Assembly (NCBI GenBank): GCA_026874595.1
Contig: CM049317.1
Coordinates: forward strand, 22,642,882-22,706,881
From: Sipunculus nudus
Lineage: Eukaryota > Annelida > Sipuncula > Golfingiida > Sipunculidae
Reading direction: 5' to 3'
Length of the DNA stretch: 64,000 nt
Made by a program: the position numbers and the translations under genes. Below, piece by piece: positions 24 to 10,069 of the stretch. The notes under the pieces are model-generated. The model was not told the origin of the DNA. It made no database searches and worked only from the letters and a program-made list of their open reading frames with translations. Each line of letters begins with the position of its first letter. Positions within the stretch are counted from its first letter, which is position 1.

Positions 24-213
24 CTGTATAGTAAAAACCCGCCATTGCCATATCCTCAGGCGGTATCAGATGTTCGTGAGGCCAGCCGGAGAACGATCTA
101 ACTCGTGCACTTTCTAAAGTCATTGCGGGGTTACATGGTTCTACTGGTCCAGTAGGAGTTTCTGGATTTTGTGGCGTATCCGTAGGCCTAATTTTCTTCC
201 ACAATGCTTTCAT
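24..213 (-). CDS. BIR-domain first coding exon of a second BIR-kinase-type gene (partial, gene runs off left edge)
   Basis: Read on the minus strand from the ATG at 213, this exon gives 63 codons plus one base and ends in a GT donor (TATACAG|GTACTC). Residues 31 onward (MTLESARVRSFSGWPHE, then DMAMAGFYYTG) are the N-terminal half of a baculoviral-IAP-repeat domain. This half packs against the zinc-binding half, which should be encoded in the next exon, left of position 1. Start context, length, intron phase (1) and the MTLES..R..SF.GWPH and DMAMAGFYYTG blocks match the exon at 9901-10069, so the two are tandem paralogs. BIR proteins bind caspases or signalling partners; a kinase exon for this copy is only inferred from the neighbouring paralog. 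The first 20 residues or so are Pro/Thr-rich and poorly conserved. Confidence 0.8.
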
Positions 214-5536: not shown

Positions 5537-6643
5537 TTACTTTCGTGGTCCCACGTGCCGGGTTCTGCCAGCATGTTCTCTCGCCCAGGTGTCCAGACCT
5601 GACCATTCAGGGTCATCCGACGGATCATCACGTGACAACCAGGACCGCGCTCTCGCTTGATTTGTTTCGAAGGTGTATATGCCACTCTCTTCCACGTCTC
5701 CCCCTCGTAGCTGCCTACTCCGTGCCTCGTTGCCATATGACTTTCTTCTGGCTCTCTCTCCAGGACGTGACGGCGTTTCGGTGGTTTCGCTTTCTTCTTC
5801 TCCTTGATCTCCAATTATCTTCCTTATATATCTTATCTTCCGGTATACATCCTCAGCTGTTGGTCTGTTTCTGGGCTCGAAGGAAATCATATCAGCGACG
5901 AGGGCCCCAAGTTCTGGCACATTCCGGAAATATGTTTTTGAAAATTTCATGTTGTTGAATGATGGGCCCACAATTTGATTTATCAATTTATTGCCCGTCT
6001 TGTCTAATCTTGGTTCCAGAAATGAAGGATTTTGCTTTGAAATCATTCTAGTTGCAGCTGCAAAGAAGACAAGGCCTAATGAAAAGATGTCAGCACTGAG
6101 GGTGTATTCCTGGTGTTCTAATAGTTCTGGGGCCACAAACATTGGGGTACCGCAAATAGTTTTAAAAGCATCCTGTCCAACGGGAAGTGCCTTTGTTAAA
6201 CCGAAATCTGCAAGTTTGCATAGCATTCGTCCTTTCTTTGGAACAGCCAGGAGAACATTATCAGGCTTCAGGTCTCGATGCATGAATCCATCTTTATGAA
6301 GAAAATTTAAGCCGTCCGCAATATCCTCCATGTAACAACATATGGTGTTCAATTTAGGGTTGTCATTTATAATATGGTCATTCAGGTTTCCCCCGTCGCA
6401 GTACTCCATAACCATATACATGCAATCTTTGCTCAAATCAGAGAAGAAATCGTATATTGTGACAAGGTGTTGGTGTCTCTTTCTTGCAAGAGCAAACTGT
6501 AACTCGTATGTTGCTGAATCTTTTTTATCAGAGAGAGAGGGCATTTCCTTTACGGCGTATTCTTTTTTGTTTTTGGTCACGTGGTAGACAATCCCGAATG
6601 ATCCTTCATTTATTCTTCTTATGATCTTGTATTCTCGGATCAT
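5537..6643 (-). CDS. Ser/Thr protein kinase domain exon (PDIK1L/STK35- or NEK-like)
   Basis: A 368-codon open exon. Within it: glycine loop NEGSFGIVY at 12-20 (first Gly of GxGxxG replaced by Asn), ATP-binding Lys 32 in YAVKEM, alpha-C Glu about 47, hinge MVMEYCDGGNLN at 77-88, catalytic HRDLKPDN at 122-129, DFG at 146-148, activation segment ending GTPMFVAPE at 165-173, and a C-lobe motif RNRPTAEDVYRKI. All catalytic residues are present, so it should be active. The exon starts immediately after an AG acceptor, so its ATG may be an internal Met. Past the kinase core the tail is charged and Arg-rich. A second frame stays open over 5458-5814, so the tail frame is uncertain. The closest remembered relatives are PDIK1L/STK35 kinases; subfamily is inference. 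Confidence 0.9.
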   Translation of the reverse strand: MIREYKIIRRINEGSFGIVYHVTKNKKEYAVKEMPSLSDKKDSATYELQFALARKRHQHLVTIYDFFSDLSKDCMYMVMEYCDGGNLNDHIINDNPKLNTICCYMEDIADGLNFLHKDGFMHRDLKPDNVLLAVPKKGRMLCKLADFGLTKALPVGQDAFKTICGTPMFVAPELLEHQEYTLSADIFSLGLVFFAAATRMISKQNPSFLEPRLDKTGNKLINQIVGPSFNNMKFSKTYFRNVPELGALVADMISFEPRNRPTAEDVYRKIRYIRKIIGDQGEEESETTETPSRPGERARRKSYGNEARSRQLRGGDVEESGIYTFETNQARARSWLSRDDPSDDPEWSGLDTWAREHAGRTRHVGPRK

Positions 6644-7280
6644 CTGAAATTAAAATTTGAACCTTATTATTAGGGCCACGCTTGACAAGCGGTGCCCTAT
6701 AGTGATCACCGTATCAGTCCGTCCTTCCGTCTATCCGTCCTTCCGTCAGTGACACTTTCTTTTGCGCGCGATAACGTAATGCAGCTTTTCCATTTTCACA
6801 GGGATCATTGGTGCCTGTGAGGGCTCCAGACCTATTGAATTACAGACTTGCTCAAAATCAAATATGGCCAACAGACTACATTCGGTAATTTTCTATTGCA
6901 CACATTATTGCAGACATATCTTCTTTAATATAATTTGATCCAGTAGGATTTTTTCCCTCATGCATATGGATAGAAACCTGTTTTTGTTTGTCATATTTTT
7001 CTAATTTAACTTAATTTTTCACCCTCATGTAAACTAGTCCAGCACTGCCAGAAATGCGGTGCCCTCTGAGGACCATTGTCCGACCATATCTAGTTCTTAC
7101 TAGAATTTTCCGAACCTGTTATTATCTAGAGGAATAGAACAGTCTAATACTTTTTTATGAATGGTATATTGTAATATTGTAAATTGGACGCATTAAATTT
7201 GACGATTTGATTGTTTCCAAAAAATATTAAAATTAAATGACTTTTGCAAGGTTTGAAAGCGTATATATTTACTGTGTTAA

Positions 7281-7339
<59 letters not shown>

Positions 7340-8549
7340 TGGTACCCCGCCTTGCGACCACCCCATAATTACGACCACTTCGCTTGGTCCCGAATTTATT
7401 TTAGTTTATTTATGTGTATAAATGACTAAAAATTACGACCACCCATGAATTTAGAATTACGACCAGAATTCTTGGCCCCAGCGCTAATGCGACCCCGCTA
7501 ATACGACTACCACCGATAAGTACTGAAACAACATGTGTCACGAGTCAGATCTAAGAGGGTAACAAGGTTTCCCAACTTGGGTGTTTATCTGGTCCGGCAT
7601 ATCTTCCTGACTCGGCGTCCGCGCTGAGACTCGTTGAGGCGTAAGTTATAGATCAAAATGGTAACCATCGGCCTGATGACTTAATGAGGCGGTCTGCCTG
7701 GCTAACTGCCCTTGGGTCTTGGGCTAGCGATGCTTATTGTCCCTCAGTGCTCACCTATATTACAGCTACCCCAAGTGCGGCGGTGAGAGTTCATATTTCT
7801 ACTCATCACATATTGTTTCATTGGTCAGATTAACGTACTAGTTGATCGTAAATGTGCTCTCACCTTACAACAAGTATTAAGCAGTCAGTAAAATGTATTA
7901 AAAAAGCTTGCATGTGGGCAAATCCCACACATTGTCTTGCCTTATCAGATAGAGCGCTTTCAGTTTATTTCTCTACTGGTTCAGTTTGCACTTAAATTGC
8001 TTTGCTGTTGTGCGACAATGCCTCGGAAAGAGCTCTCCTTGAAGGAGAAAGTAGCGGTATAATCAAGGCGAGAACACCATGACGCAGTCAGCGCCAACTG
8101 GCTCGGCAGTTTAGCGTCGGTAAAACTCAAGTGCACGCAATATAATTATTATACTGAAGCGGAAGGGTAAATACAGACAGCCACGTATCATGTTCAATAT
8201 GTATTCAGTAGGTTGTCTTCGTATTGCCTCTGGTGTTATTATGTGTTAATCAACAGTAACTACGTTTGTGTATATGTATATTAATTTTTATAATGAATAA
8301 ATATATAAAACAATTTTGTTTTCTTTACAGCTACACACAAAAATCATTCATAATAAAGGTCCTTTGCTAAGTAGATTTTTTGTTATAATTCACATTAAAG
8401 ACATGCAATAGATACACACTTATATCAACATTAAACATCGGCTAGTTATATGCGACCAAGGTAACAGTTTCACAAATACGACCATCCCCAAATTACGACC
8501 ACTTTGCTCAGTCCCTCGGGTGATCGTAATTGTGGGGTTCCACTGTATA

Positions 8550-8600
<51 letters not shown>

Positions 8601-10069
8601 TGGATTTTTATGCTTATACATACCTCGGATTTTCTTGTCCCGGATTTTTCTTTGATGTACAGACACTCGGGTCTGTGTTTCAGATGTTCCTCAACGGGAT
8701 CATCGGTTGGCTCCCATTTGTTCAGAGGAAGATCACAAAAGAAGCATCTCACCTTGTCCTCCTTACCTGCCGATCAATGTCAAGAACAACAAATAACAGG
8801 AAAGTACTGTCTACAGAGAGGCGTTTGAAATTGAAATCGTGATTGTCAAAGCATCTTTTATATATATTCTATAGTATAGTCAATCATATAACCATGAGAA
8901 CGGAACTATAAAACTTTGGACCCTCGTGTTAAAAGTGTAACGTAAGGGTTAACGTCAGGGTCATCGTAGACTTATCTATTAAAGTTATCTAAACCCTTCT
9001 GTATCTGAAATCTTATGTTATAATGTTATATGATGGGGCGGGGGGGGGGGGGGGATTCTCATCTATATTGTTCTTTATTGTTGAGATTACAGATAAATAA
9101 TCTTTATATTTTATGCAAACTATTAAACACAGAATGTAAAACAAGTGAAATATTTGCGAGATATCTTGTATGAGTCAATATACATACACATAATACACAT
9201 AAAAAAAGCAGATACACATACATATATATATGTATAAATACACAAATATATAAACATATACACATTATACCCGAATACATATATATATACACATATAGAA
9301 ATATATATACAAGGACTGGACCCGGACAACGTTTATCTTGCCCATTATATAGACTTTACCAATAAACTGACCTCTCACTATCATCCGATATTAACCACTT
9401 TGACCTTCACGTAACGTCATGAAAATAATACATCGTTGTCCCGCTAAAAACAACGGTATACTCCGGAAATTTTCTAAAATTAACCTATATACCTGTGTGG
9501 CAACAACACATGTTATGTATGTATACAACTACAAATGTACTTATATACACACATTTACACATTGGTACATACACATGACAGTCATACATACATAAACATA
9601 CATATATGCATAAAAATGCATATATATCCATACATAGGCGTGATTACACCTTGACACAAAATAAAATCTATAATCTGTGCGATTGTTTTAGTTTCCTGCT
9701 ATGACAAAAGGATTGCTCTCACAGATGAAATGGATCCGATCATAAGTATACGTCTGAATTATTTATGATTTTATGTATATATTATTATGAATAGCTAGAA
9801 TAATTTTTTTTTTGTGTGAAACAACAAAATATATGTGTAGAACAGGTTATCAAGGATTAGTTGATATACTACAATATTGTTAAAAGAGCTCTGACAGTAC
9901 CTGTGTAATAGAAGCCCGCCATCGCCATGTCCCTGGCCGGAATGGTTTTATTATGTGGCCAGCCGGTAAACGAAAGAAGTCTCACACTTTCTAGAGTCAT
10001 ATTTGGCTTGCAGGGTTCTTCTGTCTCTTCTTTGGACAATTCTGCGCGTTTTTTCAGAAATCCTTTCAT
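5537..10069 (-). CDS. BIR-kinase fusion gene: IAP-type BIR domain joined to a Ser/Thr protein kinase, 3 exons
   Basis: Minus-strand model: complement(9901-10069, 8624-8766, 5537-6643). Exon 1 ends one base into a Gly codon (ACA G|GTACTG). Exon 2 begins GT after a CAG acceptor and completes that codon, then ends on a whole codon (TCC GAG|GTATGT). Exon 3 begins directly after TTTTAATTTCAG, in phase 0. The joined protein is about 472 residues: an N-terminal tail, one BIR domain (residues about 24-95), a short linker and a complete kinase domain. By family knowledge BIR domains mediate protein-protein contacts in cell-death and innate signalling and kinases phosphorylate Ser/Thr; combining them in one polypeptide is inferred from phase and order. 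Intron 2 contains a Tigger element. The alternative is that a BIR fragment and an ATG-initiated kinase gene are separate, since the kinase exon itself begins with ATG. Confidence 0.72.
6680..7090. repeat. Interspersed repeat bounded by gcggtgccct
   Basis: Lies in intron 2 of the BIR-kinase gene. A GTCCGTCCTTCCGTC-type head follows gcggtgccctatagtg, and gcggtgccctctgagg recurs at the far end. No coding content is seen. Confidence 0.4.
7284..7336. repeat. (TA)n microsatellite
   Basis: The array directly abuts the left end of the Tigger-like element, which inserts at TA. Confidence 0.95.
7337..8545 (+). mobile_element. Tigger/pogo-like DNA transposon, decayed, 1.2 kb
   Basis: The left end reads CAGTGGTACCCC and the right end is the inverse of CAGTGGAACCCC. 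Both termini are followed inward by related ACGACCACTT-type sequence. The element is flanked on both sides by TA, the target of pogo/Tigger transposons, in fact by (TA)n arrays. Inside is a broken transposase start (8018-8170). At 1.2 kb it is shorter than autonomous Tiggers (about 2-3 kb), so it is internally deleted and non-autonomous. Confidence 0.85.
8018..8170 (+). pseudogene. Tigger transposase N-terminus, CENP-B/Psq-type HTH, broken
   Basis: From the ATG at 8018 the frame reads MPRKELSLKEKVAV and then hits TAA. In another frame the text continues RQLARQFSVGKTQVHAI, the standard helix-turn-helix of Tigger transposases. At least one stop and one frameshift separate the two parts, and no DDE catalytic domain follows. 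Confidence 0.8.
8546..8599. repeat. (TA)n microsatellite
   Basis: An imperfect TA array at the right edge of the Tigger-like element. Confidence 0.95.
8624..8766 (-). CDS. BIR domain exon 2: zinc-binding half
   Basis: Codes GKEDKVRCFFCDLPLNKWEP, then TDDPVEEHLKHRPECLYI and a basic linker ending KSGTRKSE-like. The zinc ligands fit the BIR signature CX2CX16HX6C exactly (Cys-Phe-Phe-Cys, His, Cys), and WEP.DDP.EEH is diagnostic. The acceptor is GATCGGCAG and the donor is GAG|GTATGT. It enters in phase 1 (matching the BIR exon at 9901) and exits in phase 0 (matching the kinase exon). A read-through open frame runs on into the TA array, but the strong donor makes that an artefact. Confidence 0.9.
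9901..10069 (-). CDS. BIR domain exon 1: start codon and N-terminal half
   Basis: 56 codons plus one base. It begins MKGFLKKRAEL and continues MTLESVRLLSFTGWPH and ARDMAMAGFYYTG, which is helix 1 and the conserved AGFYYTG of BIR domains. The ATG is preceded by in-frame A/T-rich sequence with no good acceptor and is aligned with the start of the paralog at 213. The donor is ACAG|GTACTG. The N-terminal 20 residues are charged (KKRAELSKEETEE). Confidence 0.88.

What the first reader, a model, noticed from the sequence alone, without database searches (positions are those of the whole stretch)
5537..10069. BIR domain fused to a protein kinase in one gene
Three minus-strand exons with correct splice sites and matching phases (1, then 0) join a complete BIR zinc domain (CX2CX16HX6C) to a complete kinase with all catalytic residues. 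Known animal IAP proteins pair BIR with RING, CARD, UBA or NACHT modules; I know of no well-described BIR-kinase receptor or effector. Bivalves are known to have greatly expanded IAP families, so this could be a lineage-specific immune or death-signalling kinase targeted through its BIR domain. The kinase exon starts with ATG, so separate genes remain possible.
Basis: partly seen in the sequence, partly recalled or inferred. Interest (0 to 1): 0.88.

Follow-up and report, generated by a model that had tools for sequence, protein, structure and literature searches.

The report
Clam gene joining BIR to kinase
A clam-like genome carries a small family of genes that join a BIR domain, the part that gives cell-death inhibitors their grip on partners, to a protein kinase in one protein; both halves have been kept by selection, which points to a kinase aimed by a death-regulator domain.

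Summary
Exons 10069-9901, 8766-8624 and 6643-5537 (minus strand) splice with GT-AG sites in phases 1 and 0 into a 472-aa protein with one BIR (Pfam E 7e-24) and one kinase domain (4.2e-50). One gene or two is largely settled by the window's own genome (1.43 Gb). At least five loci on one chromosome carry BIR exon 1, BIR exon 2 and a kinase exon in the same order and strand. In 4 of the 5 the splice sites are consensus with the same phases; in three of these the BIR-kinase intron is only 344-384 nt. The tandem neighbour B is intact too. Between A and B dN/dS is 0.20 overall, 0.17 in the BIR and 0.14 in the kinase. The other three copies are decayed. Two relatives of the kinase exon show no BIR in the flanks searched and seem to start with a phase-0 acceptor, so exon shuffling is the likely origin. 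Oyster, clam and scallop IAP surveys, as far as read here, report no kinase partner. Function is inferred: the BIR groove probably binds a partner and so steers or gates the kinase. No transcript was available. New variant of a known kind.

The parts
9901..10069 (-). Exon 1 of gene A: start codon, N-terminal 29 residues and first half of the BIR; donor CAG|GTACTG, phase 1
8624..8766 (-). Exon 2 of gene A: zinc-binding half of the BIR and short linker; donor GAG|GTATGT, phase 0
5537..6643 (-). Exon 3 of gene A: kinase domain, C-terminal tail and stop
8767..9900 (-). Intron 1 (1134 nt), phase 1, inside the BIR
6644..8623 (-). Intron 2 (1980 nt), phase 0, between BIR and kinase
8654..8766 (-). 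BIR domain, part in exon 2 (zinc ligands C64, C67, H84, C91); the rest of the domain is 9901-9982
9901..9982 (-). BIR domain, part in exon 1
5843..6631 (-). Protein kinase domain (residues 109-371)
5540..5842 (-). Charged C-terminal tail (372-472) with a motif like ESGIYTxET seen in paralogues too
7337..8545 (.). Probable transposon-like insert with short terminal inverted repeats that enlarges intron 2 (ends approximate)
   Evidence: arms 7284-7348 / 8534-8598, mostly TA repeat; the reading as a transposon is inference
24..213 (-). Exon 1 of tandem paralogue B; its exons 2 and 3 lie left of the window (C12:22641385-22641222 and 22640837-22639812)

Best explanation
Gene A is a real three-exon gene for a single protein: one BIR, a linker of about 14 residues, an apparently active serine/threonine kinase and a charged tail. 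It arose when a phase-0 intron brought the two-exon BIR module usual in clam IAP genes next to a single-exon kinase that already had a phase-0 acceptor; the fused gene then duplicated on one chromosome, two copies staying intact and three decaying. Shown: architecture, paralogues, splice agreement, selection on both domains. Inferred: the origin by exon shuffling, and that the BIR groove binds the free N-terminus of a partner (an IAP-binding-motif protein such as a cleaved caspase or Smac-like protein), which brings kinase and partner together or relieves an inhibited state, so that the kinase phosphorylates components of cell-death or NF-kB signalling. It would do in one chain what survivin does for Aurora B, or what XIAP BIR2 docking does with RIPK2, in separate chains.
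For: Open 472-aa spliced frame with both domains. Five loci with identical order and strand. In A, B, D, E (4 of 5): CAG|GTA donor 1, AG acceptor 2, GTATGT donor 2, AG acceptor 3, with exon 2 lengths all leaving phase 0; exon 2 is 164 nt in B, D and E; intron 2 is 384, 362 and 344 nt there. A-B dN/dS 0.202 (bootstrap 95% 0.142-0.302), BIR 0.169 (0.063-0.369), kinase 0.143 (0.074-0.239), while the best intron alignment has E 0.26. B also matches BIR and Pkinase in Pfam. BIR of A has E83, H84, H87, C91, the set that Witkop et al. use for conserved Type II (passages), the type said there to bind IBM proteins. Most hard clam IAP genes begin with a two-exon BIR, followed by an exon after a phase-0 intron (PMC7831173, section 8 read). 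Kinase relatives F and C2 have an AG in phase 0 just before the kinase and no detected BIR.
Against: No RNA or protein evidence. Three of five copies are decayed, so turnover is high. B has DFC in place of DFG and R at the H87 site. BIR and kinase identities do not rank alike: D's BIR is as near to A (75%) as B's (74%), yet its kinase is the farthest of the five (54%); part of D's row is read out of frame, which lowers the figure, but a mosaic history is not excluded. Of the survivin residues K62, E65 and H80, A keeps only the last (survivin residues from passages), so histone-tail binding is not expected. Caspase or IBM binding is untested. The kinase could not be placed in a known family.
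Confidence: 0.5

Rival explanations
1. Two separate neighbouring genes: a short BIR protein (exons 1-2) and a single-exon kinase with its own promoter in intron 2.
For: The kinase exon begins with ATG in A, and that Met is conserved in all five copies. No transcript was seen.
Against: Five loci keep the pair; in B, D and E only 344-384 nt separate them; donor 2 and acceptor 3 agree in phase in 4 of 5 under consensus sites; acceptors sit two codons before the Met in B-E.
Confidence: 0.06
2. The BIR acts by self-association: BIR-BIR or BIR-kinase contacts bring two kinase domains together for trans-phosphorylation, or hold the kinase off, with no IBM partner needed.
For: XIAP BIR2 binds across a RIPK2 kinase dimer (PMC10485824, discussion part 1 of 2 read), so BIR-kinase contacts exist in trans; the linker here is short.
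Against: No structure could be predicted, so it is untested; Type II residues are kept in A, which suggests peptide binding.
Confidence: 0.3
3. The family is dying: A and B are survivors without function.
For: C, D and E carry frameshifts, stops or a lost zinc ligand; B ends early and has DFC.
Against: A-B dS is about 1.27 with dN/dS 0.20 and both frames open.
Confidence: 0.07
4. The gene derives from the virus-like element that carries several BIR genes in this genome.
For: The best BIR matches outside the family are ORFs of that element, about 45% identical.
Against: 45% is ordinary between BIRs (other matches outside the family lie at 35-52%); element BIR ORFs match without interruption, while this BIR is split by an intron as in clam IAPs; by position none of the 55 kinase matches lies in an element copy.
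Confidence: 0.04

Closest known systems
Bivalve IAP genes (clam, oyster, scallop BIR families)
   Same: BIR split over the first two exons, then a phase-0 intron; tandem duplication and purifying selection also reported (PMC7831173, section 8 read)
   Different: Partners named in what was read are RING, UBA, UBC, death domain, BIRC6, WD40 (PMC8917759 section 8) and RING, UBC (PMC7893105 passages); no kinase among them
Survivin in the chromosomal passenger complex with Aurora B
   Same: A single BIR recruits a kinase to its site (PMC9253516 passages); W74, D78 and H87 occupy positions of survivin W67, D71 and H80 (W67 and D71 recalled; placed by zinc-ligand spacing)
   Different: There the BIR and the kinase are separate proteins; of K62, E65 and H80 only H80 is kept here
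XIAP BIR2-RIPK2 complex
   Same: A BIR contacts a kinase domain in NF-kB signalling (PMC10485824)
   Different: Separate proteins; XIAP is a RING ligase that ubiquitinates RIPK2
NAIP (BIRC1)
   Same: Best solved-structure matches of the BIR
   Different: Three BIRs with NACHT and LRR (recalled), no kinase
ULK1/ULK2 and other serine/threonine kinases
   Same: Best solved-structure sequence matches of the kinase (ULK1 106 bits, ULK2 97, then DAPK3 91; with the family profile ULK1 137, NEK1 131)
   Different: Narrow margin; relative F matches NEK1 and then mostly CDK2 best; no ULK C-terminal domain match

Membership tests
IAP (BIRC) family | BIR domain with CCHC zinc ligands | tested here: met
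   Pfam BIR 7e-24; C64, C67, H84, C91
IAP (BIRC) family | Type II groove residues (E/Q76, H77, W/H80, C84) | tested here: met
   A: E83, H84, H87, C91; B has R in place of H87; criteria from passages of PMC8917759
IAP (BIRC) family | RING or UBC for ubiquitination (common, not universal) | tested here: not met
   No such Pfam match in A or B
Protein kinase superfamily | Catalytic Lys, alpha-C Glu, HRD, DFG, APE | tested here: met
   All in A; B has DFC
Protein kinase superfamily | Catalytic activity | not testable with these tools
   Needs an assay
Survivin (BIRC5) | K62, E65, H80 for binding the H3 or Sgo1 N-terminus | tested here: not met
   L69, N72, H87: 1 of 3 kept (residues from PMC9253516 passages)
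ULK kinases | Clear best match and ULK C-terminal domain | tested here: not met
   Narrow lead only; no such Pfam domain

The most novel reading that the evidence does not exclude
A new class of one-chain signalling enzyme, a BIR-guided kinase: the BIR reads freshly exposed protein N-termini, such as those made by caspases, and the kinase marks those proteins, turning protease activity into a phosphorylation signal in clam cell-death or antiviral immunity.
Probability: 0.3. Interest if true: 0.82.

Novelty: new variant of a known kind. Interest (0 to 1): 0.62.

Why it matters
BIR domains are known mainly for ubiquitination or caspase blocking, and where they serve a kinase (survivin-Aurora B, XIAP-RIPK2) the two are separate proteins. 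A fusion kept by selection gives a direct genetic link between BIR recognition and phosphorylation, and shows that the large bivalve IAP radiation has probably taken up a new effector type. In the listings and papers seen here no BIR-kinase protein appeared, so it may be undescribed, though databases of mollusc proteins and most subscription papers were not available.

Tried and rejected
Two separate genes: rejected on paralogue evidence. Kinase family assignment by solved structures: inconclusive; my recollection that the C-lobe resembles PDIK1L/STK35 was not tested. BIR upstream of kinase relatives F (C12:13817229) and C2:12138182: none found in about 3.9 kb and 6.5 kb upstream; the only real hit near F is copy E's own exon on the other strand. 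C6:60795322 showed none in 1.5 kb either side. A search with a 41-residue stretch across the junction found only the five known loci and matched essentially the kinase side, so it says nothing on the junction. Structure of the kinase exon: job failed, then the tool was off. The first dN/dS script used a wrong exon 2 start for A and its A figures are void (its B model stands); repeated correctly. Copy C could not be fitted: its BIR acceptor is in the wrong phase, its kinase has a frameshift and only a GC donor fits, and the string match for C failed, so C is not in the splice count (4 of 5).

Full report
What was checked. Pfam finds a BIR at 30-94 (E 7e-24, 84.6 bits) and a protein kinase at 109-371 (E 4.2e-50, 171 bits). 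The BIR has all four zinc ligands and the kinase the main catalytic residues looked at; only the first glycine of the glycine loop is replaced.

One gene or two. The window's genome can be searched: 1,426,538,692 bases in 153 contigs, window at C12:22642882-22706881. A search with the kinase exon gave 55 matches (149 candidates, 111 scored) and one with the two BIR exons listed 150 matches (522 candidates, 150 scored); the tool calls such counts lower bounds. They coincide, in the same order and on the same strand, at five loci, all on C12: A (window), B about 5 kb downstream of A (22639812-22643094), C at 22.98 Mb, D at 22.46 Mb on the other strand, and E at 13.81 Mb.

Splice agreement. In A, B, D and E (4 of 5) donor 1 is CAG|GTA, acceptor 2 ends in AG, donor 2 is GTATGT and acceptor 3 ends in AG; exon 2 is 143, 164, 164 and 164 nt, each keeping phases 1 and 0; intron 2 is 1980, 384, 362 and 344 nt. 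In B, C, D and E the acceptor lies two in-frame codons before the Met that opens the kinase exon in A. A separate kinase gene would need no such acceptor, and in three copies there is little room for its promoter. A's longer intron 2 holds a stretch between two TA-rich inverted arms that I read as an inserted transposon (inference). Copy C does not fit: its BIR acceptor is out of phase and its kinase carries a frameshift.

Selection. B is intact: 459 residues with both Pfam domains, ending earlier than A. Over 442 aligned codons (280 identical residues) the Nei-Gojobori estimates are dN 0.256, dS 1.269, ratio 0.202 with bootstrap range 0.142-0.302; BIR domain 0.169 (0.063-0.369, 65 codons), kinase 0.143 (0.074-0.239, 263 codons), tail 0.419 (0.184-0.806, 71 codons) (193 to 200 of 200 resamples usable). 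dS above 1 is near saturation, so the ratios are rough. The best alignment between introns of A and B has E 0.26. Both domains were therefore constrained together after an old duplication. C, D and E are decayed: stops, frameshifts, and in E the first zinc Cys is Tyr. Against a simple history, BIR and kinase identities to A do not rank alike: BIR D 75%, B 74%, C 63%, E 61%; kinase B 68%, C 58%, E 56%, D 54%. D's kinase row holds stretches read out of frame, which may explain it; exchange between copies is not excluded.

Origin. Two further kinase exons are related to this kinase: F at C12:13817229 (head to head with E, 43% identical) and one at C2:12138182 (36%). In each an AG that would be a phase-0 acceptor stands just before the kinase, and no BIR was found in the upstream DNA examined. 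The C2 copy has HRN for HRD and may be inactive. In the hard clam most IAP genes, retroposed ones excepted, start with a BIR spread over two exons, followed by an exon flanked by a phase-0 intron, and the authors propose insertion or mixing of exon modules (PMC7831173, section 8 read). The simplest origin is that a BIR module of this kind was placed before a kinase exon of matching phase (inference).

What it may do. By the residues used for oyster BIRs (passages of PMC8917759) A has a conserved Type II BIR, the type said to bind IBM proteins such as caspases and Smac; B would be Type II-like with Arg at the key position. Placed on survivin by zinc-ligand spacing, A keeps H80 but not K62 or E65, so binding of histone H3 or Sgo1 in survivin's way is unlikely (passages of PMC9253516). 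BIRs are known to work with kinases in trans: survivin with Aurora B, and XIAP BIR2 across the RIPK2 dimer (PMC10485824, discussion part 1 of 2). I therefore favour a BIR that recruits an N-terminal ligand for the attached kinase; self-association is the main rival. None of this is tested here.

Comparison with print. Oyster IAPs carry 12 non-BIR domain types; those named in the section read (RING, death domain, UBA, UBC, BIRC6, WD40) include no kinase. The word kinase stands 15 times in that paper's main text; 12 of 23 passages were shown for my terms, and the kinases there were names of pathway proteins. The word does not occur in the main text of the hard clam paper or the scallop paper. 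Six literal names such as BIR-kinase are in 0 papers of the library, and broader term searches listed no such protein (titles and abstract starts only, beyond the papers read). Subscription papers, supplements and protein databases were not searched, so absence is not shown.

Organism. Long contigs seen run from C1 to C17 (63-111 Mb where a length was printed; C14, C15 and C17 known only from match positions; contig numbers just above C17 not seen), and no haemocyanin beta-sandwich domain was found, though that search had no positive control. Mya arenaria has 17 chromosomes and 1.22 Gb and a lucinid has 17 and 1.58 Gb; neither size fits closely. A heterodont bivalve is likely; the species is not known.

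Verdict. A confirmed observation, a real fused gene with high probability (about 0.92, my estimate), a plausible but untested mechanism, and a new variant of the IAP family.

Noticed in passing
Genome G000, e.g. C4:59682193-59802864, C10:28422579-28559840, C6:2324188-2445326; inside view L072: By hand count, 54 places with a BIR ORF of mostly 263 or 273 aa and near-equal scores, and about 50 with a BIR ORF of about 195 aa; in four pairs that I subtracted the two lie 117-137 kb apart on the same strand. One search adds BIR ORFs of 387 and 211 aa close by. Ten kb inside one copy holds long ORFs on both strands, 1 of 4 scanned with a sub-threshold Herpes_env match (E 0.0043). It looks like a giant multi-copy element, perhaps an integrated herpesvirus-like virus with IAP genes. 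None of the 9 DNA polymerase B matches fell in these copies.
   Followed up: partly
C6:59.98-61.61 Mb: A cluster of further BIR matches, many in long open frames, with a decayed relative of this kinase at C6:60795322 in the same stretch; no BIR was found within 1.5 kb of that kinase.
   Followed up: partly
C12:22975057-22981200 (copy C): The DNA after C's kinase holds several repeats of the tail motif (ESGIxTL..T ... DLSGLDML), as if the tail had multiplied.
   Followed up: no
C69:1034348-1037983 (L021), C114 (L025), C106: Small contigs with kinases and a polymerase in long open frames that look bacterial to me; possible symbiont or contaminant DNA in the assembly.
   Followed up: no
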